From Maribacter stanieri (GTDB lineage: Bacteria; Bacteroidota; Bacteroidia; Flavobacteriales; Flavobacteriaceae): DNA of 64,000 nucleotides. The notes beneath the pieces were generated by a model. It did not search any database and was not told the DNA's origin. It saw only the letters and a list, made by a program, of their open reading frames with translations. The position numbers and the translations under genes are program-made. The stretch spans positions 731,856 to 795,855 of the forward strand of contig NZ_FOYX01000001.1 of the NCBI RefSeq assembly GCF_900112245.1, given 5' to 3'. Below are positions 44,278-55,062 of this stretch, piece after piece (positions within the stretch are counted from its first letter, which is position 1; each line of letters opens with the position of its first letter).

Positions 44278-45384
44278 ATGAAGATTTCAAAAGTACCCTC
44301 CCCTACACTTTTAGTTATAACATTAATTATCTGTTCTCTTTTCACCACAAACGCACAGAAAGCTGGTGGGTTTTACGAAAAGCTACGAGAATTTAATTTC
44401 CCGTATTCCCCTGCTCCTGCTGGTGTAGTATATTACAAAATGGACCACAATTTAAAATCTGGTAGTATTACCATGAAAGACTACCGTGGTGAAATTGTTA
44501 CTATCGATAATTTTAACCATAAGCGTCCCACTTATCATCCTGACTATAAAAATTATACGAATCCGCTTAGTGTGCTTCAAACGTATGATGACTTAAAAAG
44601 CAATAAAACCAACACCATTTATTACAACCTAAACAGTAGTAATATTGAATTGTATTACAATAAAGGTGAAAGCGATACTATCTATGATGTGTTCGCCAAT
44701 TTTAAAGCTAAATATACTGCCAAATACCATGGCAAAATTATAGCTGAAGATTCTTTAATATTTAACGACAAAGTAGGCGAAATTGTTAGTAAGCTTAAAG
44801 GCAAAGATTTTGCTATAGTAGCTGTAAATAAAAGTAAAAATGTTTCCTACGATGCAAATGACCAAATTCTTGTAACGGTACATAATGCTTACCAAGGTTT
44901 TGTAAGAAGAGCACAAATGTCTTATGGCAAAAACAATATGGCTTTTATTAAGCTTAAGAAAACAAAGAAACTTGCTTCTGAAGATGACGTAAACCAACTT
45001 ACGGAAGCTATTAAAAACTTGCAAGCCATAGATACAGGTCTTAAATCTAGAAATACAAGAAACGAAGAAGTACAACGGTTAATTGAAAAAATTACTGCCT
45101 TAATTGATTCTGAAGATTACAAGACATACGATGATTACAAAGTGTTTGTACACGGAAATTTAGGCTCGTTATATACTCTTCTAGAGGATTATGACACAGC
45201 AATAGCTCAATATGATTTAGGCGCATCACATAGCTCTCGTGGCGGTCTAAGTTCTTACCTGAATGATGGTAAACATAAAGCCGAATTTAGAAAGGAACGA
45301 AAAGAAAAGTTGTTTCTCGATGGAGAAAACAGCGTTAAACCTGAGTTTAGCGAAAGATACAATAAGCGATACCAAGGCAACTAA
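44278..45384 (+). CDS. Secreted protein of unknown function (368 residues, first of a pair)
   Basis: A signal peptide (about 1-26) precedes a mature region with about 210 residues of mixed strands and helices and a helical C-terminal part (about 240-340) that may form TPR-like hairpins (VFVHGNLGSLYTLLEDYDTA). The C-terminal end is very basic and acidic (FRKERKEKLFLDGEN). No family is recognised. It is followed after 64 bases by a second secreted protein of the same length with a similar outline; sequence identity between them appears low. Confidence 0.7.
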   Translation: MKISKVPSPTLLVITLIICSLFTTNAQKAGGFYEKLREFNFPYSPAPAGVVYYKMDHNLKSGSITMKDYRGEIVTIDNFNHKRPTYHPDYKNYTNPLSVLQTYDDLKSNKTNTIYYNLNSSNIELYYNKGESDTIYDVFANFKAKYTAKYHGKIIAEDSLIFNDKVGEIVSKLKGKDFAIVAVNKSKNVSYDANDQILVTVHNAYQGFVRRAQMSYGKNNMAFIKLKKTKKLASEDDVNQLTEAIKNLQAIDTGLKSRNTRNEEVQRLIEKITALIDSEDYKTYDDYKVFVHGNLGSLYTLLEDYDTAIAQYDLGASHSSRGGLSSYLNDGKHKAEFRKERKEKLFLDGENSVKPEFSERYNKRYQGN

Positions 45385-45448: not shown

Positions 45449-46555
45449 ATGATCAAGAAAATCATTCCATTACTATTTGTTGTTCTCTTTAATTTACAGC
45501 TACAAGCTCAGTCTTTAAAATCTAAAGGTTTCAGGGTGTATATGCCCAACTATGCTGAACAATTGGCGCCCAGACAAAGCGAAACCTATTGGGCAGAAGT
45601 AGTATTAGGACCAGAAGAGGTATTAAACTTTACAAAAGACGAATTTCAAAAAGGTCTTCAGCTTGAGGATTTTAAAGAAATAACAGGTGAACAATCTCCA
45701 GATATGTTTTTTGCCATAAACGGTATATCAGCAGATGACTTAGAAGTTACAGGTACAATTGCACCTATAGCAGGTGATACCTATAGTATTGATATATCTC
45801 CAAAAGACAATAAAAGCGTAAAACTCCTTTTCTATTATAAAGAAGAATTGACACAATTATGGCAAATACCCCTTTTGCCAAAAGTAGATGTGCAAGGAAA
45901 TAAAATTCCAATCACCATCAACTTTCCTGAAGATGAAAAAGAAAAGTATCTAATGTTAGAAAGTGGGCGTGCGGTGCCAGATATAAGTCCGTATATGGTA
46001 GAAATGTACTTGGATAAAAAGCTTGGAGAATCTTTTCTTTCGAAAATCATAAATACAATACAAGATATCTACGATAATAATATGGTGGAGATTTATACCA
46101 ATTTTTACTTTGTAAAAGACAAGAAAAACAAAGCATTGGCAGATGAAACCAAAGACAAGCTTTCTGAGATGTCAGAACTATCTAAAGCCAGTTTATCTAC
46201 CCTGAGTGCGGTAAGAGAAAATAAGAAGGAGATAGATGCACATATCACCTATTGGAAAAATTTATTACCAAATTATAAAGATACCAGTGACAAAAAAATA
46301 GCTAAAATTAGATGGGGTATACTTATGAACCTATCACAGTTGTCACTAATGGTAGAAGATTTTAAAAATGCAAACACCTATTTAAACCAAGCTTCTGAAC
46401 TAGATGTAAAATCTAACGCAGTAAAACAATCACAAAAAGATTTAAGTAAGCTTTATTCTGATTACATGTTAAACTATAACGAAGCAACTGGAGAAAGAAA
46501 ATATTCCAAAGGCTATGAAGTTAGCACCTCTGCAAAAATAATAAGAGTGTTATAA
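45449..46555 (+). CDS. Secreted protein of unknown function (368 residues, second of a pair)
   Basis: A signal peptide (MIKKIIPLLFVVLFNLQLQAQ, cut near QAQ) leads to a beta-rich N-terminal half (SPDMFFAINGISADDLEVTG, PIAGDTYSIDISPKDN) and a helical second half with possible TPR-like helices (MNLSQLSLMVEDFKNANTY). No family is recognised. The layout of strands then helices parallels the gene before it, so the two may act together in the periplasm. Confidence 0.7.
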   Translation: MIKKIIPLLFVVLFNLQLQAQSLKSKGFRVYMPNYAEQLAPRQSETYWAEVVLGPEEVLNFTKDEFQKGLQLEDFKEITGEQSPDMFFAINGISADDLEVTGTIAPIAGDTYSIDISPKDNKSVKLLFYYKEELTQLWQIPLLPKVDVQGNKIPITINFPEDEKEKYLMLESGRAVPDISPYMVEMYLDKKLGESFLSKIINTIQDIYDNNMVEIYTNFYFVKDKKNKALADETKDKLSEMSELSKASLSTLSAVRENKKEIDAHITYWKNLLPNYKDTSDKKIAKIRWGILMNLSQLSLMVEDFKNANTYLNQASELDVKSNAVKQSQKDLSKLYSDYMLNYNEATGERKYSKGYEVSTSAKIIRVL

Positions 46556-47777: not shown

Positions 47778-48560
47778 ATGAATAGTGCTATGCTTATTGT
47801 CTCCATTCCCTTTGAACCTATTGTATTTGGGATTAAATTAAACATGCACCTTATTCTTGAATACCTAGCCTTTTTTATAGGATTCAGGTATTACGTTTAC
47901 TTACGTAAAAAAAGTACCGATATAATTTCTTCTAATAATCGCCTATCAATTATAATAGGTGCTGTTTTTGGTGCTTTGGTGCTTTCTAGAATCGTTGCCT
48001 TTTTTGAAAATCCGATAGCTCACCATAATGAGGATTGGCTTTTTAACCTCAACAATAAAACTATTATGGGCGGACTCTTTGGTGGGTTGTTAGGGGTAGA
48101 GCTTGCCAAAAAAATTATTGGTGAAAAACATTCTTCTGGAGACCTTTTTACGTTACCTATAATTCTTGGTATTATCATTGGTCGCTTGGGTTGTTTTCTC
48201 GCAGGTATAAAAGAGTTTACCTATGGAAAAGAAACTTCATTTTTTATGGGCATGGATTTAGGTGACGGAGTTACAAGGCACCCAATAGCGCTTTATGAAG
48301 TAGTTTTTCTTATACTTCTTTTTATAATCATAAAACGCCTTCAAAAAACAGCTATCTTTTTTGTAAATGGGAATTACTTTAAGCTTTTTATGGTCAGTTA
48401 TTTCTCATTACGTTTCTGTATAGAATTTCTAAAACCAAATAGTTTTTATATGCTAGGTCTCAGTAGCATTCAATTATTATGTTTAATTTGTTTGATTTAC
48501 TACTATAAATTCATCCTTCAGGGAATTACATATGTCCGAAAAAAACTATACGTATTATGA
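47778..48560 (+). CDS. Divergent Lgt-like (prolipoprotein diacylglyceryl transferase family) membrane protein
   Basis: A 260-residue protein with about seven membrane helices and the Lgt fold. It keeps G-R136 in GIIIGRLGCF, H168-P-x2-L-Y-E174 in RHPIALYE and R212-x3-E216-F in LRFCIEF. It lacks the His of the E. coli HGG motif: the equivalent stretch reads TIMGGLFGG. The Asn after GR (GRxGN) is Cys139 here. True Lgt moves diacylglycerol from phosphatidylglycerol to lipoprotein Cys; loss of that His suggests a different reaction or partner. Its end overlaps the radical SAM gene by 29 bases, pointing to translational coupling. The housekeeping Lgt should be encoded elsewhere. Confidence 0.78.
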   Translation: MNSAMLIVSIPFEPIVFGIKLNMHLILEYLAFFIGFRYYVYLRKKSTDIISSNNRLSIIIGAVFGALVLSRIVAFFENPIAHHNEDWLFNLNNKTIMGGLFGGLLGVELAKKIIGEKHSSGDLFTLPIILGIIIGRLGCFLAGIKEFTYGKETSFFMGMDLGDGVTRHPIALYEVVFLILLFIIIKRLQKTAIFFVNGNYFKLFMVSYFSLRFCIEFLKPNSFYMLGLSSIQLLCLICLIYYYKFILQGITYVRKKLYVL

Positions 48561-49926
48561 TTTTACACTAAGTCTTTGTCCAGAATGTCTTAGAAGGGTA
48601 GATGCCAAAATCGTTTTTGAAAACGAGAAAGTGTATATGCTTAAGAACTGCAAAGAACATGGTAGGTCTAAAGTTTTAATTGCTGACGATATTGAATATT
48701 ATAAGAACATAAGAAACTATAACAAAGCTTCTGAGTACCCAAAAACCTTTAATACAAAAACACACTATGGTTGCCCTTACGATTGCGGACTATGCCCAGA
48801 TCACGAGCAACATTCATGTTTAACCGTAATTGAACTTACAGACCGTTGCAACCTTACATGCCCAACCTGTTATGCAGGATCTTCGCCCACTTATGGCAGA
48901 CACAGAACCTTAGAGGAAATTAAAAAGATGTTGGATGTCATCGTTAAAAATGAAGGCGAGCCAGACGTTGTTCAGCTTAGTGGTGGTGAGCCAACTATAC
49001 ACCCAGAGTTTTTTGAAATACTGGATTACGCAAAATCACTTCCTATTCGGCATTTGATGTTAAATACGAACGGAATTAAAATTGCAAAGGATTTTGAATT
49101 CGCAAAACGATTGGCAACCTATGCCCCAGATTTTGAAGTGTATTTACAGTTCGATTCATTGGATAACAAAGTATTAAAAACACTAAGAGGCGCAGACCTG
49201 GCAGATGTTCGTTTACAGGCCCTTGACCATCTTAATAAATTAAACCTTTCTACCACACTTGTAATTGTTATACAAAAAGGTCTCAACGACCATGAAATGG
49301 GTAGCACTATTGACTTTGCCTTAAAACAGAAATGTGTACGTGGTGTTACGTTTCAACCCACGCAAATAGCTGGGCGATTAGAGAATTTTGAAGTGGATGA
49401 AAACCGAATTACATTAACCGAAGTACGACGAAAAATACTTGAGCAATCTCCTATTTTTGAATCTGATGATTTGATACCTGTACCATGTAATCCTGATGCT
49501 TTGGTGATGGCTTACGCCTTAAAATTAGGCGATGAAGTGAATCCGTTAACACGTTTTATAAACCCCGATGATTTATTGAACGAAGGTAAAAACACTATTA
49601 TTTACGAGCAAGATGAGCAGCTACATGGTAAAATGATCGAACTTTTTAGCACAGGAAATTCTGTAGAAAAAGCATCGGAAAATCTTAAAAGTATTATGTG
49701 TTGCCTACCAGAAATTGATGCTCCAGAATTGGGTTATGACAATTTGTTTAGAATTATAATCATGCAATTTATAGACGCTCATAACTTTGATGTTCGTGCT
49801 ATTAAAAAATCATGTGTACACATTGTAAACAAAGATTATAAGATTATTCCGTTTGAAACAATGAACCTTTTTTATAGGGATGATAAGATTGAACGTTTAA
49901 AAGAACTACAAAACGAAATGCTATGA
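48532..49926 (+). CDS. Radical SAM enzyme of the tetraether-lipid-synthase-like (Tes/MJ0619-like) family
   Basis: A 464-residue radical SAM protein. An N-terminal zinc/iron site (C16-x2-C19, C40 with His43, as CPEC and CKEHG) is followed by C81-x3-C85-x2-C88 and C96, a candidate auxiliary cluster (GCPYDCGLCPDHEQHSC). The SAM-cluster motif is C106-x3-C110-x2-C113 (CNLTCPTC), and GGEPTIHP lies in the core. The C-terminal third has C319, C390-C391 and C428 (SCVHIVNKDYKIIPF). This Cys layout and the N-terminal order resemble archaeal tetraether synthase and its bacterial relatives; family assignment is from memory. Those enzymes join lipid tails through radical chemistry. Overlaps on both sides tie it to the Lgt-like and small membrane genes. 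Confidence 0.8.
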   Translation: MSEKNYTYYDFTLSLCPECLRRVDAKIVFENEKVYMLKNCKEHGRSKVLIADDIEYYKNIRNYNKASEYPKTFNTKTHYGCPYDCGLCPDHEQHSCLTVIELTDRCNLTCPTCYAGSSPTYGRHRTLEEIKKMLDVIVKNEGEPDVVQLSGGEPTIHPEFFEILDYAKSLPIRHLMLNTNGIKIAKDFEFAKRLATYAPDFEVYLQFDSLDNKVLKTLRGADLADVRLQALDHLNKLNLSTTLVIVIQKGLNDHEMGSTIDFALKQKCVRGVTFQPTQIAGRLENFEVDENRITLTEVRRKILEQSPIFESDDLIPVPCNPDALVMAYALKLGDEVNPLTRFINPDDLLNEGKNTIIYEQDEQLHGKMIELFSTGNSVEKASENLKSIMCCLPEIDAPELGYDNLFRIIIMQFIDAHNFDVRAIKKSCVHIVNKDYKIIPFETMNLFYRDDKIERLKELQNEML

Positions 49927-50120
49927 TATTAGAAGTTGGTAATCTAGACGGTCTTGCTACTTTATTGTTTCTTATAATGTTTGGTCCCGCAATATTGTTC
50001 ATTATTATTGGAGCTATTTTGTTTTATTATAAGAAGAAAAAAGCGGGGAAAGTCTTTATGATTTTAGCAGGTGTATATTGCCTAATTAGCTTAGGAGTCT
50101 GTGGTGCAATGATGGCATAA
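49923..50120 (+). CDS. Small two-helix membrane protein of the radical SAM operon
   Basis: A 65-residue protein with two membrane helices (about 13-34 and 42-62) separated by a basic loop (YYKKKKAGK). Its ATG overlaps the stop of the radical SAM gene (ATGA), a classic coupled start, so it is very likely expressed with it. No family is recognised. It may anchor the soluble enzyme to the membrane or hold the lipid substrate; both ideas are inference. Confidence 0.72.
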   Translation: MILEVGNLDGLATLLFLIMFGPAILFIIIGAILFYYKKKKAGKVFMILAGVYCLISLGVCGAMMA

Positions 50121-50125
50121 ACAAA

Positions 50126-52525
50126 TTATAGACGTTTGCCTTCTTCAGTGTTTTTTCGTTTGTAATTGTCCCGTATTTTGGTATTTCCAAACTTATATCT
50201 AAAGCCAAATACGAACAATCGGGTCTCTTTTCTAGTACTTGTAATGTTATTTTGATCTAGATAATCTCTAGTAGAAAACATATTTCCGTTATTAAAAATA
50301 TCATCAACACCCATAGAGATACTGGCATCTTTGTTCCAGAAAGTTTTTCTAAAATTTAGCCCTAATTTACTATACGATTCATAAGTAGCGTTTCCTTGAA
50401 TAGATGGAGACAAATAAGTAAATGTTACATCTGCATAGAGCGATTTATCCTTTAAAAGTGTAAAGTAATTATTAGCGCGAAGATGAGTGGTCCAAATAGA
50501 ATTTTCTATGGTAGTGTTTGTTTCTACATCTATAAAGCTATCCTTATCATGATAGTGGCTTACAAGAAAATACAAATACCAAAACGAGGTTAAATCTTTA
50601 GAAACACTCGCATCTATACCGTAAAAATAATTGGTTTCTAAATTTATATATTGAGCCCTAAGGGTATTGGTGGCATTGTCCTGAAAAATTTGTTGCACTT
50701 GCTCGTTCGATTTTTTATTGGCAAAGACTAGAACTTTAAAATCTCGGTCATAAACATAGTCAAACTGGACATAGTCACTATAGGCCGGTTTTAAACTAGG
50801 ATTCCCTTCAGAAATAGAATTTGCTGACAAGTAAAATTGAAACGGATTTATACTACTATATCTTGGTCTGGTTATACGTCTATAATACTTAAAGTAAATA
50901 GCATTTTTCTCTTTCGTATAAGACATCGACATATTTGGGAACAGGTTAAAATAAGAACTGGTGTTTTGTAATGAAAGATTGTCTAATTCTCCTTTTGTAT
51001 CTATATACTCCGTTCGTAAACCCAAATTTAATTTCCATTTATTCCAGCTGCTGTTTACACTAGCATAGCCTGCGTAAATTTGTTCGTCGTAATCAAATAT
51101 ACCCGAGCCTGTAGGGTTTATACCTTCTAAAGTATCGTCAAACCCAGATTGTATAATACTTGCCTCTGAATTTATCGTTGCAATTCTTAAACCTGTTTCC
51201 ATTGTGGAGTGTTCAGATAACGGTAATGTAAGATCCGTTTGGGCACTAAAAAGATTAATGATTTGGTCAGAATTTATATTCAAGGTATTCTCGGAAGTGT
51301 TTTCTGTAAAACCTTGCACAATATCATTATTTACTTCTTGGTTTAGTTTAGAATCATAATATGTAAAGTGTGCATTAGTAGATAATTCCGCTCCTTTATC
51401 ATTCAGCTTATAAACCCAATCTAAATAGTTAGACGAGTTGAATTTATCTGAATTCAAAATATTAAGTCCGTATAAACGCGCCATAAATTCACCCGTGGTG
51501 TCTTCTATATCAGTTATTGAAGAAAAATTTATTCCGCCGTTAGGTGAAAAGCTTGATGTGGAAGAAAGGCTAATTGCATTTTTCTCGTCTAATTCAACAT
51601 CTAAGAAAAGGTTTAGATTATGGCTTCTTTTATTGCTTATAGATTTCTGTTCGGCCGTCCAAACTTCACTTTCTTGTCCGCTTTCAAAATAGGTAGTAAT
51701 ATCAGAATATCTCGTCCAATCTCTATCATGACTAAAACTGTAATTGGTAGAAAAATCTATCTTTTTTCCCTTAAAAAAATGATCCATACCCAAAGTATGT
51801 TTAGGTAATACTCCTTGTGTATATCTATTAAAAAGGGCTCCATTATACCCAGCAACTAGGTTTTTTTTCATTTTTATGTCAATCAACAAACCGCCTTCTG
51901 CACTGTATTTAGCCGGCGGACTCGTAATCACTTCTATAGATTCTACGTTGCTTGCAGAACTGCCCGTAAGTAGATTAATAATATCATCTTCCGGTAAATT
52001 AACGCGTTTACCATTGATCATAATATTCACCTTAGAACTACCATTTACATACAAACGATTATTCATCACCATTACACCCGGAGTTCGTTTTAGAACATCC
52101 CAAATATCACCATCAGAAAGTGCGGTATTTTCAACATTAAAAATATGACGATCTGCTAATTGTTCTAGTTTTGGTTTTTTTTGGGTTACTATAACCTCAT
52201 CTAATTCTTGTGAGCTCTGTAGTATAAGAGGTGATATTTCAATACTTTCTGTAATGGTAGTTAATGGACTCTCTACCGTATTGGCAATATAACTTGCAAC
52301 TATACGATAACTACTAGGTGATATAGCCTTAAATTCATAATATCCTTGATCATTTGTAACGGTACCCTTTATAAATTCACCTTCTTCACTTAGTAAAATT
52401 ACATTTGCAAGAACCACAGGCTCGCTATTGTCATCTATCACTAAACCGTTTATAATAAAATCTTGAGAAAACGCCAGGGTAAACGTAAGACAAAGTAGTA
52501 ATGTTATATAAGTATCCCTAGCCAT
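50126..52525 (-). CDS. Outer-membrane beta-barrel receptor with carboxypeptidase-like domain (TonB-dependent type), copy 1
   Basis: A 799-residue protein with a signal peptide (cut near AFSQ), a carboxypeptidase-regulatory-like domain (about 22-105), a plug-like region (about 110-220, with VIVTQKKPKLEQLADRHIFN) and a large barrel (about 230-780). The layout matches the OMP_b-brl_3 family. A similar protein is encoded next to it (52636-55062), so they probably arose by duplication. The ligand is unknown. It converges with the radical SAM operon. Confidence 0.87.
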   Translation of the reverse strand: MARDTYITLLLCLTFTLAFSQDFIINGLVIDDNSEPVVLANVILLSEEGEFIKGTVTNDQGYYEFKAISPSSYRIVASYIANTVESPLTTITESIEISPLILQSSQELDEVIVTQKKPKLEQLADRHIFNVENTALSDGDIWDVLKRTPGVMVMNNRLYVNGSSKVNIMINGKRVNLPEDDIINLLTGSSASNVESIEVITSPPAKYSAEGGLLIDIKMKKNLVAGYNGALFNRYTQGVLPKHTLGMDHFFKGKKIDFSTNYSFSHDRDWTRYSDITTYFESGQESEVWTAEQKSISNKRSHNLNLFLDVELDEKNAISLSSTSSFSPNGGINFSSITDIEDTTGEFMARLYGLNILNSDKFNSSNYLDWVYKLNDKGAELSTNAHFTYYDSKLNQEVNNDIVQGFTENTSENTLNINSDQIINLFSAQTDLTLPLSEHSTMETGLRIATINSEASIIQSGFDDTLEGINPTGSGIFDYDEQIYAGYASVNSSWNKWKLNLGLRTEYIDTKGELDNLSLQNTSSYFNLFPNMSMSYTKEKNAIYFKYYRRITRPRYSSINPFQFYLSANSISEGNPSLKPAYSDYVQFDYVYDRDFKVLVFANKKSNEQVQQIFQDNATNTLRAQYINLETNYFYGIDASVSKDLTSFWYLYFLVSHYHDKDSFIDVETNTTIENSIWTTHLRANNYFTLLKDKSLYADVTFTYLSPSIQGNATYESYSKLGLNFRKTFWNKDASISMGVDDIFNNGNMFSTRDYLDQNNITSTRKETRLFVFGFRYKFGNTKIRDNYKRKNTEEGKRL

Positions 52526-52635: not shown

Positions 52636-55062
52636 CTATTCAAGGCGTTCGCGCTCAATTTTTTCAATATCACGTTGGTTGTCTTCTAGGCGAAAATTAC
52701 CAAAGTTGTACGTGAATCCGAACTTTACATATTGGGTTTCTGGAACCGTTAAATAACCGTTGTCTTGGTTTAAATATTTAGAAGAAACAAACGCATTGCT
52801 TTTATTTAAAAGATCATTAGCGCTAATACTAAGTACTGCTCTATTTTTTAAAAAAGATTTTCTAAGACCTACGGTTAGGTTGGTAGATTCTTCTTGTATA
52901 AATGAGCCCTGCAAAAAACCAGAGAGATAAGTAAATCCCAATTCTCCTTTAAAACTACCATCTTTAGAAAGTGTAATATAATTGGTAAGATCAACGTACG
53001 CTCCATTAAAACTATTCTTATAAGAATATTCATCGCTTTGTAGAGCAATAAAAGATTCATCTTCATGAAAAATGGAAATATAGCTATACAAATACCAATT
53101 GTTTGTTATCGATTTACCGTATGTAAAATCAAAACCATACGATGTGCTTTCTAGAACGTTTTGAGTAATGTCTCGTAAAACAAAATTATCATTGTCCTGA
53201 AAAGTGAGCGTAGAAATATACATTCCATTATCACGATAATAGAAGTCAAAAAAGTATTCTTGATTAAGGGTATAGTTTAAGTTAAGATTGTGGCTAAAAC
53301 TAGGTGTTAAATTAGGATTTCCCTCTTCAAAAGTTCGTTCGTTTATATAGGTTCTAAAAGGATTTAAATCTTCGTATCTAGGTCTTTGTACTTTTCTAGC
53401 ATAATCAAAAGATAAGCTATGATGCTCATTAATATTATGAAGAACATATAATGAAGGAAAAAGTTCAAAATAACTTAACTTATTCATATCAGCAACATTT
53501 ACAGATAACCCAGAACTTTCTGTCTGTTCTGCCCTAAGACCTGTTTTTAAGCTCCATTTTTCCCAATCTTTTGATAAGCTAAAATAACCAGCATAAACAC
53601 TTTCATCATAGGTATAATCATCAGATAAATTAGGTATAAATTCTGTACCGTTATTCTGTAAAAAATAATCTAATCTACTTTCAGAATCAATAAAAGAACC
53701 TTTTACACCCGTTTCAAAAAATACACTACCTAAATAATCAGTATAATCTATTTGCGCCGTCTTTATATCTATTTGTTGATCTGCAAGGGTAGAGAAATTG
53801 AAATCGCGTAAAAAAGAACCACTAGGTAAAAAATAATTGGAATTAACATTTTGGTTACGATCTAAGTCGAAATAGGTATAGTGCGCATTTGCAGTTATAT
53901 TTCCTTGATTTTTAAATTGATGTTTAAAAGTAAGGTCGCCCGAAATGTTATTCTTTTTTTCATTAAAAAAGCTGTTGGTGTTAAAAATAGAATCTAGAAC
54001 TCCCGCGCCATTTTTAATTGTTGTCTCTTGAAAAAAATCTGCATCTCGCTTTGGCTGAAATTGTGCATTACTAGTTAAACTAAGAGAATTCTTATCATCA
54101 AATTCATAATCAACAACAAGACCAGCACTATGGTTATTACTTCTAATCACTTGGTCAAAATCAGTATCCCAAATAGAAACAATACCGCTGTCGTCCATAA
54201 AATTTGTGTTATTTATAGTGTTCTTATACTCCTTTTTGGGAGCATAATTATAACTGGCATTTAGGTTTAACTTCTTGGTCTTATAAAAATGAGAAGTGCC
54301 AAAATTATATTTAGGAAATACACCTTGAGTATACCCTGCATTAACATTACCCTTATAGCCTATTGATAGATTTTTACTGGTAACAATATTTAAAATTGAA
54401 CCTCCTTCGGCATCATAACTTGCTGGTGGATTATGAATAACCTCTACCGATTTAATATTCTCGCCCTGGTAATTTTCTAGAAGACTTCTTACCTCTTCTG
54501 CAGATAATTGAACTTTTCGGTTATTAATATATACTGTAGTAGCTTGGTTTCTAACTTTAAGGTCATCGTTCATAACAATAACTCCAGGTGTTTGGCTTAA
54601 GATATTCCAAGAACTATTCTGAGAAAGCACTGTGTTTTCCACATTAAAAACAATACGGTCTACCTTACGTTCTACCACAGGCTTATTGCTTACAACGGTT
54701 ACTTCGTTAAGCTCTTCTGTATGTTGTTCTAAAATTAAGGCTCCAATTTTAGTGTCTTTTAAAATCTCAATAGCTAAATTATCTGACATTTGACCAACGT
54801 AAGATGCCTTTAAAAAATATAGCCCTTCAGCAATATCTGAAAATAAAAAAACTCCATTTTCATCGGCAGAAGTACCTTTTACCAATACAGAATCTGTTAC
54901 TGTAAGTAGAAAAATAGAAGCAAAAGCTACGGGTTCTTGATATTGGTCTTTAACCTCACCTTTAAGTTCAAAGGTTTGGCTATGTCCATAATGAGATAAC
55001 CCTATGGTAAAGAATAAAATAGCAATTATTAGTTTCAAAGGCAATTTGGGGTTGATAGTCAA
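52636..55062 (-). CDS. Outer-membrane beta-barrel receptor with carboxypeptidase-like domain (TonB-dependent type), copy 2
   Basis: An 808-residue paralogue of the preceding gene with the same order: signal peptide (cut near HSQ), carboxypeptidase-like domain, plug (VTVVSNKPVVERKVDRIVFN) and barrel. The start is TTG 55062, since no ATG lies before the signal peptide. Shared phrases include the VENT(A/V)LS region and GYTQGVFPK / RYTQGVLPK. It is 110 bases upstream of copy 1 and probably a duplicate. Confidence 0.85.
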   Translation of the reverse strand: MTINPKLPLKLIIAILFFTIGLSHYGHSQTFELKGEVKDQYQEPVAFASIFLLTVTDSVLVKGTSADENGVFLFSDIAEGLYFLKASYVGQMSDNLAIEILKDTKIGALILEQHTEELNEVTVVSNKPVVERKVDRIVFNVENTVLSQNSSWNILSQTPGVIVMNDDLKVRNQATTVYINNRKVQLSAEEVRSLLENYQGENIKSVEVIHNPPASYDAEGGSILNIVTSKNLSIGYKGNVNAGYTQGVFPKYNFGTSHFYKTKKLNLNASYNYAPKKEYKNTINNTNFMDDSGIVSIWDTDFDQVIRSNNHSAGLVVDYEFDDKNSLSLTSNAQFQPKRDADFFQETTIKNGAGVLDSIFNTNSFFNEKKNNISGDLTFKHQFKNQGNITANAHYTYFDLDRNQNVNSNYFLPSGSFLRDFNFSTLADQQIDIKTAQIDYTDYLGSVFFETGVKGSFIDSESRLDYFLQNNGTEFIPNLSDDYTYDESVYAGYFSLSKDWEKWSLKTGLRAEQTESSGLSVNVADMNKLSYFELFPSLYVLHNINEHHSLSFDYARKVQRPRYEDLNPFRTYINERTFEEGNPNLTPSFSHNLNLNYTLNQEYFFDFYYRDNGMYISTLTFQDNDNFVLRDITQNVLESTSYGFDFTYGKSITNNWYLYSYISIFHEDESFIALQSDEYSYKNSFNGAYVDLTNYITLSKDGSFKGELGFTYLSGFLQGSFIQEESTNLTVGLRKSFLKNRAVLSISANDLLNKSNAFVSSKYLNQDNGYLTVPETQYVKFGFTYNFGNFRLEDNQRDIEKIERERLE

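What the first reader, a model, noticed from the sequence alone, without database searches (positions are those of the whole stretch)
47778..50120. Three-gene coupled operon: Lgt-like protein without its catalytic His, Tes-like radical SAM enzyme, small membrane protein
The Lgt-like gene overlaps the radical SAM gene by 29 bases and the small gene overlaps by ATGA, so the three are expressed as a unit. The Lgt-like protein keeps GR, HPxxLYE and RxxxEF but reads TIMGGL where Lgt has HGG, and has Cys after GRxG. The radical SAM protein has the N-terminal CPEC/CKEHG site, an auxiliary-type Cys set, CNLTCPTC and C-terminal Cys residues, resembling archaeal tetraether synthase and its bacterial relatives. 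Tes-type enzymes make C-C bonds between lipid tails; Lgt-type proteins bind phosphatidylglycerol. A shared lipid or lipoprotein substrate would make this an undescribed membrane-lipid modification.
Basis: partly seen in the sequence, partly recalled or inferred. Interest (0 to 1): 0.85.

Follow-up and report, generated by a model that had tools for sequence, protein, structure and literature searches.

The report
Widespread Lgt-like, Tes-like, Cys-tail cassette
Three overlapping genes in this window belong to an apparently undescribed gene set, found in many bacteria and a few archaea, that pairs a lipid-transfer-enzyme relative and a radical enzyme with tiny membrane proteins ending in a conserved cysteine, and that may attach or tailor a lipid on that cysteine.

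Summary
The linkage is real and wide. In 149 same-family genomes the Lgt-like protein (297 bits or more) occurs in exactly the 20 with the full-length radical SAM protein, and it lies near that gene in 72 of 80 named loci of several phyla. 'Tetraether-synthase-like' is only partly supported: the protein misses the Tes and TrsS cut-offs, forms a separate clade and lacks the C-terminal Cys set of Tes. A canonical lgt exists elsewhere. Best reading: the Cys tail is a lipobox-like target of the Lgt-like enzyme, and the radical enzyme acts on the same lipid or protein. The chemistry is untested; no structure model could be made.

The parts
47778..48560 (+). Lgt-like integral membrane protein (P0001, 260 aa), Lgt paralogue with Cys139 at the place of E. 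coli Lgt Asn146 and Met97 at the place of His103
   Evidence: PF01790 78.7 bits, below TIGR00544 cut-off (33.8 of 118.9); alignment A4; profile alignment to 5azb
48060..48077 (+). TIMGGL (residues 95-100), at the place of the HGGL motif of Lgt; no His at that place in any of the 113 relatives with a readable residue
48183..48194 (+). R136-L-G-C139: Arg equals Lgt Arg143 (114 of 114 readable); Cys139 in 110 of 112 readable relatives, Asn in L062 and L063
48411..48413 (+). R212, equals Lgt Arg239; 114 of 114 readable
48532..49926 (+). Tes/TrsS-supergroup radical SAM protein (P0002, 464 aa)
48577..48660 (+). N-terminal rubredoxin-like metal site C16-x2-C19-x20-C40-x2-H43, same spacing as GDGT-MAS C9-x2-C12-x20-C33-x2-H36
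   Evidence: sequence; PMC9433317 passages
48772..48795 (+). C81, C85, C88: N-terminal auxiliary [4Fe-4S] motif
   Evidence: invariant in the 32-row A3; PMC9433317 passages
48847..48870 (+). CNLTCPTC: radical SAM CX3CX2C cluster (C106, C110, C113)
49486..49815 (+). C-terminal Cys set C319, C390-C391, C428; C319 and C428 invariant in the 32-row A3; different from Tes
49923..50120 (+). Small two-helix membrane protein (P0003, 65 aa), no family match above cut-off
   Evidence: profile A5
50031..50051 (+). KKKKAGK loop (residues 37-43) between the two helices; predicts the C-terminus at the periplasmic face by the positive-inside rule
   Evidence: K+R count over 120 relatives
50100..50102 (+). Cys60 in SLGVCGAMMA: the conserved C-terminal Cys, proposed acceptor
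   Evidence: invariant in 19 of 19 rows of A5

Best explanation
The three genes are one system that modifies a small membrane protein on its C-terminal cysteine. Shown by sequence: gene coupling, co-distribution, kept PG-site arginines in the Lgt-like protein, and a near-universal Cys at the end of the last helix of the small proteins. Inferred: the small protein inserts with its Lys/Arg loop in the cytoplasm, so that the Cys, in a lipobox-like L/F-G/A/S-x-C setting, sits at the outer face of the inner membrane, where Lgt works. The Lgt-like enzyme then moves a diacylglyceryl (or similar) group from phosphatidylglycerol to this Cys, giving an 'inverted', C-terminally lipid-bearing protein. The Tes-like radical SAM enzyme attacks an unactivated C-H bond of the same lipid's tail, before or after transfer (less likely, of the small protein itself). 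Likelihoods: one functional system 0.95; the Cys is the point of the system 0.75; the Lgt-like enzyme lipidates that Cys 0.5; the radical enzyme works on the lipid tail 0.35.
For: Co-distribution: full-length Tes-like in 20 of 149 same-family genomes; Lgt-like at 297 bits or more in the same 20 and no others, next best 104 bits; small protein at E 1.5e-7 or better in 19 of the 20, plus G003 and G072. Wide linkage: 72 of 80 named loci have an Lgt-like gene on the same strand, 68 of the 72 within 2 kb. Two genomes with a Tes-like gene but no Lgt-like gene beside it, G180 and G414, carry one elsewhere (302.8 and 311 bits). Lgt-like and Tes-like distances correlate at r 0.86 over 108 loci, 0 of 1000 permutations as high. 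Small proteins: 125 of 133 operonic small membrane ORFs have Cys in the last 18 residues against 35 of 87 controls; small-x-Cys motif 120 of 133 against 19 of 87; K+R before the last helix exceed those after the Cys in 116 of 120. A stricter signature gives 66 ORFs in 435,194 strand-bases near the genes and 5 in 1,333,488 elsewhere in the same loci. N-terminal parts vary (B-box zinc finger in L118, zinc ribbon in L062) while the Cys helix stays. The orphan copy in G003, where neither enzyme was found, reads SSGFFYAIIA: the Cys is gone. The Lgt-like protein keeps the Arg143, Arg239 and Tyr235 equivalents, whose variants failed, or for Tyr235 nearly all failed, in E. coli Lgt (PMC4728403 passages).
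Against: No chemistry is shown. The motif was defined after seeing the sequences, and relatives are not independent. Lgt His103, essential in E. coli, is Met here, and Arg246, where Lys was not tolerated in E. coli, is Lys here and in 104 of 114 readable relatives. The radical SAM protein should be cytosolic while the Cys is predicted outside. The Cys context fits the standard (recalled) lipobox only loosely. By the strict chain rule 30 of 126 loci show no operonic small ORF: 17 of the 30 do under a looser rule that required the Cys, 4 more by eye, L035, L084 and L128 show none, and 6 are cut by contig or locus ends. The strict signature is met near the genes in only 55 of 80 named loci. The cassette is patchy, 20 of 149 same-family genomes, so it is not a general need. 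G003 is one case and only 80% complete.
Confidence: 0.5

Rival explanations
1. The product is a free membrane lipid: the radical SAM enzyme joins or alters acyl tails of phospholipids, the Lgt-like protein binds or transfers the head-group side, and the small protein is only a scaffold or regulator.
For: Closest solved relative is GDGT-MAS (E 3e-69; profile A3, E 3.9e-106 over nearly the whole length); N-terminal rubredoxin, auxiliary cluster and SAM motifs kept with Tes spacing. Met439 of GDGT-MAS aligns with Met411, and neither it nor Tyr459 is needed in vitro, so their conservation or loss does not decide. A Black Sea survey reports Mss homologues in Armatimonadota, Omnitrophota, Patescibacteria, Woesearchaeia, Spirochaetota and Bacteroidota (PMC11868695 passages), groups that also hold loci of this family, so some could be what is counted there as the lipid-coupling enzyme Mss. 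In deep-branching loci an ICMT/PEMT-type methyltransferase sits in the cassette.
Against: Three C-terminal Cys positions and about 22 residues of Tes are missing; below the Tes cut-off. A scaffold role does not explain the C-terminal Cys, tandem duplication, variable N-terminal domains, or Cys loss in the orphan.
Confidence: 0.24
2. The small proteins are precursor-like substrates of the radical SAM enzyme: it makes a peptide modification (for example a thioether or methyl group at or near the C-terminal Cys) before membrane insertion, and the Lgt-like protein lipidates or holds the product.
For: Small, tandemly duplicated ORFs coupled to a radical SAM gene resemble maturase-substrate pairs; several NCBIfam peptide maturases are weaker relatives.
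Against: The candidates are hydrophobic membrane proteins of about 55-200 aa, no leader/core split is visible, and the nearest characterised relative works on lipids.
Confidence: 0.18
3. The Cys is a redox or metal ligand: it pairs with Cys139 of the Lgt-like protein or passes electrons towards the iron-sulfur enzyme, and no lipid is attached.
For: Both proteins carry a conserved Cys, in the Lgt-like protein at a place near the Lgt active site; some deep-branch Lgt-like proteins have three Cys (GC...GCCYG).
Against: The Cys stands alone in 68 of 120 small proteins, the two Ktedonobacterales Lgt-like proteins have Asn instead of Cys139 although the Cys-tailed small proteins are there, and the partner belongs to a lipid transferase family.
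Confidence: 0.08

Closest known systems
Lgt, prolipoprotein diacylglyceryl transferase (PF01790, E. coli Lgt 5azb)
   Same: Sequence family, Arg143/Arg239/Tyr235 equivalents, RHP and LYE motifs
   Different: His103 to Val/Met, Asn146 to Cys (110 of 112), under the equivalog cut-off; found only with the Tes-like gene in the 149 same-family genomes; a higher-scoring Lgt is present in addition in the own genome and in the five bacterial genomes checked
Tes / GDGT-MAS, archaeal tetraether synthase (NF045702, 7tol)
   Same: Rubredoxin site, N-terminal auxiliary cluster, CX3CX2C core, nearly full-length homology
   Different: Three C-terminal Cys positions and about 22 residues missing, Tyr459 absent; separate clade; different partners
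TrsS radical SAM (seleno)protein (NF045646)
   Same: Best NCBIfam hit (329 bits) along most of the length
   Different: Under the cut-off (490); two plasmid relatives of the broader group (Mycolicibacterium, Halorarius; 36 and 30% identity) sit beside a methyltransferase-domain gene and no annotated Lgt; whether those two are TrsS was not tested
Mss, bacterial membrane-spanning lipid synthase
   Same: Radical SAM enzyme reported to keep the Tes architecture (PMC13274423 passages)
   Different: Relation unknown: no Mss sequence was in hand
C-terminal lipid anchoring by archaeosortase
   Same: C-terminal lipid anchoring of proteins (PMC12186497 passage)
   Different: No sortase-like gene noticed beside the cassette here; proposed acceptor is a Cys thiol

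Membership tests
Lgt (prolipoprotein diacylglyceryl transferase) | Pfam LGT above gathering score | tested here: met
   78.7 bits, cut-off 24.9
Lgt (prolipoprotein diacylglyceryl transferase) | TIGR00544 equivalog cut-off | tested here: not met
   33.8 of 118.9 bits
Lgt (prolipoprotein diacylglyceryl transferase) | His103 of the HGGL motif | tested here: not met
   Met in P0001; no His in 113 readable relatives; but Tyr/Phe in some housekeeping-type Lgts, so not decisive
Lgt (prolipoprotein diacylglyceryl transferase) | Arg143 and Arg239 | tested here: met
   R136 and R212, each 114 of 114 readable
Lgt (prolipoprotein diacylglyceryl transferase) | Asn146 in the signature motif | tested here: not met
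   Cys139; Cys in 110 of 112 readable relatives, Asn in L062 and L063
Lgt (prolipoprotein diacylglyceryl transferase) | Diacylglyceryl transfer activity | not testable with these tools
   needs biochemistry
Tes tetraether synthase | NF045702 cut-off | tested here: not met
   292.2 of 450 bits
Tes tetraether synthase | Rubredoxin C-x2-C-x20-C-x2-H, N-auxiliary CX3CX2C and SAM CX3CX2C | tested here: met
   against PMC9433317 passages
Tes tetraether synthase | Three C-terminal Cys positions conserved in Tes | tested here: not met
   12 of 12 archaeal Tes have them, P0002 none in register; L062 keeps one (PFC)
Tes tetraether synthase | Tyr459 | tested here: not met
   Ile431 in P0002; Tyr in 11 of 12 archaeal Tes; Y459F and Y459L variants of GDGT-MAS are active, so weak
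Tes tetraether synthase | Groups with archaeal Tes in a tree | tested here: not met
   Split 100/100; tool warns that long branches meet
TrsS | NF045646 cut-off | tested here: not met
   329.1 of 490 bits
TrsS | Adjacent methyltransferase-domain gene | tested here: inconclusive
   None among the ORFs beside the cassette in the window; present beside two plasmid relatives; that this defines TrsS is my inference
Mss bacterial membrane-spanning lipid synthase | Homology to a proven Mss | tested here: inconclusive
   No Mss sequence in hand. Thermotoga maritima (that it has Mss is recalled) gave no match at E 1e-40 to the Tes profile or 1e-30 to the TrsS profile; against this, published Mss hits share several phyla with this family
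Classical bacterial lipoprotein (small protein) | N-terminal signal peptide with lipobox | tested here: not met
   The conserved Cys is C-terminal

The most novel reading that the evidence does not exclude
A third kind of lipid anchoring: an inverted, C-terminal lipobox on small membrane proteins, read by a dedicated Lgt paralogue, with a radical SAM enzyme that joins or remodels the tails of the protein-bound lipid, possibly producing a protein tethered to a membrane-spanning lipid, in many bacterial phyla and a few archaea.
Probability: 0.3. Interest if true: 0.92.

Novelty: new variant of a known kind. Interest (0 to 1): 0.74.

Why it matters
If right, S-lipidation of proteins by the Lgt fold is not restricted to N-terminal lipoboxes, and radical SAM lipid chemistry may act on protein-bound lipid. 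It also warns that surveys reading 'Tes homologues' in bacteria and marine archaea as tetraether makers (one used E below 1e-50 and identity above 20%, PMC8941075 passages) probably count members of this different family: P0002 matches GDGT-MAS at E 3e-69 in a search of PDB chains. The one Marine Group II hit reported there could be of this kind, as locus L121 is (that its family, Thalassarchaeaceae, belongs to Marine Group II is recalled). The cassette is present in named bacterial strains (for example Flavobacterium tyrosinilyticum L108, Paenibacillus harenae L074, Cylindrospermum L100), so it can be tested directly.

Tried and rejected
Rejected: 'the Lgt-like gene is the genome's lgt' (a higher-scoring Lgt exists; also in five of six other genomes checked, the sixth an archaeon with the Lgt-like one only). 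Rejected: 'it is Tes' and 'it is TrsS' by curated cut-offs, residues and tree. Weakened: His loss and Tyr459 loss as signs of changed function. Led nowhere: families for the small proteins, solved structures for P0003's family (11 weak matches, best E 0.075), more copies of it in the own genome (one match). A first control for the Cys (37 of 87 in the last 22 residues) was high, I think because it includes spurious ORFs; a stricter signature was then used, whose five control hits look like spurious ORFs by eye. Of the 30 genomes that match the small-protein profile at E 0.01, nine match only at 0.0016-0.009 and were not counted. In one search the rule also picked a 226-aa ORF in L048 and a 214-aa ORF in L055 with Cys-rich ends, which I did not count; the L048 one lies, like the DUF4395 ORFs, between the radical SAM and Lgt-like genes.

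Rows dropped before counts: L001, L002, L023, L050, L051; L001-L003, L016, L023, L048-L051, L053, L062, L063, L125, loci without an Lgt-like ORF and rows outside length limits. A3 and A4 hold non-redundant rows within length limits, and I left out L103 and L125 (A3) and L062 (A4). L062 matters: its Lgt-like protein, like L063's, has Asn and not Cys at place 139; one search recounts all 116 Lgt-like ORFs.

Literature: searches list no paper that by title and abstract describes this cassette; only open-licence PMC papers were searched. Papers seen as passages: PMC9433317 (also its section 4), PMC8941075, PMC4728403, PMC13274423, PMC13188914, PMC12186497, PMC11868695; others as listings only. On recheck I raised the free-lipid rival from 0.22 to 0.24 because Tyr459 is dispensable and Mss surveys overlap in phyla.
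Full report
Observation. P0001 (260 aa) matches LGT PF01790 with 78.7 bits, well over the gathering score, but only 33.8 of 118.9 bits on the Lgt equivalog model. P0002 (464 aa) matches Radical_SAM and an N-terminal zinc ribbon. P0003 (65 aa) has no family above a cut-off. The genome has a second Lgt with 183.3 bits, so housekeeping lipoprotein modification is presumably covered.

The radical SAM protein. Its best curated models are TrsS (329 bits, cut-off 490) and Tes (292 bits, cut-off 450). Five relatives from other phyla score likewise below both (TrsS 315-377, Tes 276-342). The only close solved structure is GDGT-MAS 7tol. The rubredoxin site has the spacing published for GDGT-MAS (C9-x2-C12-x20-C33-x2-H36; PMC9433317 passages), and the two CX3CX2C sites are kept. 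In the C-terminal part, three Cys positions found in 12 of 12 archaeal Tes (the Cys of the HPHCG-like motif, RC-x-IH, PFC) are not kept in register in P0002, and about 22 residues after C319 are missing; C319 and C428 are invariant in the 32-row alignment instead. C428 is only one residue out of register with the RC Cys, so an alignment shift is possible there. Locus L062 (Ktedonobacterales) keeps the PFC Cys and looks intermediate. That the Tes Cys positions are cluster ligands is my inference from conservation. Tyr459 (Tyr in 11 of 12 Tes) is Ile431 here, while Met439 aligns with Met411; variants of GDGT-MAS at both places stay active, so neither decides. A tree of 51 proteins separates 12 Tes and two distant proteins of the same phylum from all 37 family members with 100/100 support; the root is arbitrary and the tool warns that long branches meet.

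Co-distribution. In 149 same-family genomes a full-length P0002 homologue occurs in 20, with one further fragment, G072. The Lgt-like profile A4 finds proteins of 297-326 bits in exactly those 20; the next score is 104 bits. The small-protein profile A5 finds 21 genomes at E 1.5e-7 or better: 19 of the 20, plus G003 and G072; nine more match only at 0.0016-0.009. The missing one, G113, has a divergent small ORF at the place, ending FSMCFGLLAGF (locus L022). In G072 only a fragment of the radical SAM gene and a small-gene stretch with a stop remain, and no Lgt-like protein is found. In G003 (80% complete) neither enzyme is found, and the lone small protein ends SSGFFYAIIA, without the Cys. These genomes share ancestry and so are not independent.

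Wider linkage. In 395 genomes of the phylum 34 match at E 1e-25, of which 31 at 1e-100 or better. In the 46 loci L003-L049 without the fragment L023, 44 show an Lgt-like ORF within the fetched flanks, cut by the locus end in L016, L048 and L049. The two others (L035, L047) carry an Lgt-like gene elsewhere in the genome (G180 302.8 bits, G414 311 bits). 72 of 80 have an Lgt-like gene on the same strand, 68 of the 72 within 2 kb, 64 upstream and 8 downstream. Of the 8 without, L059, L061, L067, L072 and L103 are cut by a contig end on at least one side close to the gene; L101 (5.2 kb upstream, little downstream), L113 and L123 have flanks without it. In L053 the Lgt-like gene is read in two overlapping frames. 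Lgt-like and Tes-like distances over 108 loci correlate at r 0.86, none of 1000 permutations as high (rows left out are listed under Tried and rejected). In 12 loci, all of the deep-branching group, an ICMT/PEMT-type gene is present near the radical SAM gene (PF04140 and PF04191 above cut-off in the two tested); two neighbouring ORFs tested are DUF4395.

The small proteins. They occur one to four in a row and, across phyla, share little but the last helix. With a rule that ignores Cys, 96 of 126 loci show at least one operonic ORF with two or more predicted helices, 133 ORFs in all, some of them clearly spurious. Of these 125 have a Cys in the last 18 residues, against 35 of 87 control ORFs (Fisher p 9e-19); 120 fit small-x-Cys, against 19 of 87 (p 6e-26). 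In the 120, position -2 is G, A or S in 109, the Cys is the 3rd to 17th residue from the end, and K+R are 0.158 per residue before the last helix and 0.028 after the Cys, higher before in 116. Cys is 0.7% of the body and 5.9% of the last 18 residues (all). A stricter signature gives 66 ORFs in 435,194 strand-bases near the genes (55 of 80 named loci) and 5 in 1,333,488 elsewhere. Of the 30 loci without a strict-rule ORF, 17 have one under a looser rule that includes the Cys, and L069, L118, L119 and L121 show one by eye; L035, L084 and L128 do not, and L033, L048, L049, L059, L061 and L101 end too soon. Variable N-terminal parts on a constant Cys helix (B-box in L118, zinc ribbon in L062) are what one expects of a modification signal. 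The motif was found by looking, so the p-values describe rather than test it.

The Lgt-like protein. In the 34-row alignment R136, C139 and R212 are invariant. The profile aligned to E. coli Lgt 5azb puts R136 on Arg143, C139 on Asn146, R212 on Arg239 and the TIVGG stretch on SFHGG. A recount of all 116 Lgt-like ORFs found beside Tes-like genes gives Arg 114 of 114 and 114 of 114 readable, Cys 110 of 112 readable with Asn in L062 and L063, and no His at the His103 place in 113 readable. In E. coli Lgt, all tested variants of His103, Arg143, Arg239, Glu243 and Arg246 failed to complement (PMC4728403 passages); the R246K change that failed there is the natural state here. Housekeeping-type Lgts of Paenibacillus and Ktedonosporobacter have Tyr or Phe at the His103 place, so the His is not universal. 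Lgt paralogues with GCFF-GCCYG also occur in same-family genomes without the Tes-like gene (L165, L166, L168; 82-103 bits).

Mechanism. The Lgt active site presumably faces the periplasm (PMC4728403 passages); by the positive-inside rule the small proteins' Cys does too. This makes the Cys the natural acceptor for the Lgt-like enzyme. The radical enzyme is most simply an enzyme on the lipid tail, as its nearest characterised relative is, but its altered C-terminal part and cytosolic place leave the substrate open. These steps are inference; no activity was tested and no structure model could be made.

Relation to known systems. It works perhaps like Lgt plus a Tes-type enzyme, but neither protein passes the curated cut-offs for Lgt, Tes or TrsS. 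Two plasmid relatives at 36 and 30% identity (Mycolicibacterium, Halorarius) sit beside a methyltransferase-domain gene, so partner choice differs between branches of the supergroup. The relation to bacterial Mss is open: Thermotoga maritima (Mss there is recalled) gives no match at E 1e-40 to the Tes profile or 1e-30 to the TrsS profile, but a survey reports Mss homologues in several phyla that also hold loci of this family (PMC11868695 passages). Zeng et al. counted bacterial Tes homologues at E below 1e-50 and identity above 20% (PMC8941075 passages), limits that P0002-type proteins probably pass. No paper describing the cassette was listed in nine searches of the open library, which misses most subscription journals.

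Noticed in passing
window 50126-52525 and 52636-55062 (- strand): Two tandem paralogous outer-membrane beta-barrel proteins (OMP_b-brl_3 with carboxypeptidase-regulatory-like domain) lie downstream on the other strand.
   Followed up: partly
window 44278-45384 and 45449-46555 (+ strand): Two consecutive 368-aa ORFs with signal-peptide-like starts and no Pfam match at 0.001.
   Followed up: partly
L052-L061, L048, L049: The deep-branching version of the cassette carries an ICMT/PEMT-like methyltransferase (12 loci), and DUF4395 ORFs in at least L056 and L057, with a three-Cys (GC...GCCYG) Lgt-like protein in L052, L054-L057 and, as GC...GCCGG, L060.
   Followed up: partly
L165, L166, L168: Another Lgt paralogue type with GCFF-GCCYG in same-family genomes without the Tes-like gene; role unknown.
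   Followed up: no
L167 (G242): A distant (33% identity) radical SAM relative also sits next to an Lgt homologue of about 124-128 bits, hinting that the pairing is older than the family studied here.
   Followed up: partly
L062 and L063: Ktedonobacterales cassettes look intermediate: Lgt-like protein with Asn instead of Cys139, and (L062) a Tes-type PFC Cys in the radical SAM protein.
   Followed up: partly
L118 6898-7158, and L119 upstream of the Lgt-like gene: A small protein with one hydrophobic helix and the Cys tail (L118 ...LLLITICGALIFSY); in L118 the N-terminal part is a B-box zinc finger.
   Followed up: partly
L138 734-943 (G003): Orphan small-protein relative without the conserved Cys in a genome where neither enzyme was found; the genome is 80% complete.
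   Followed up: yes
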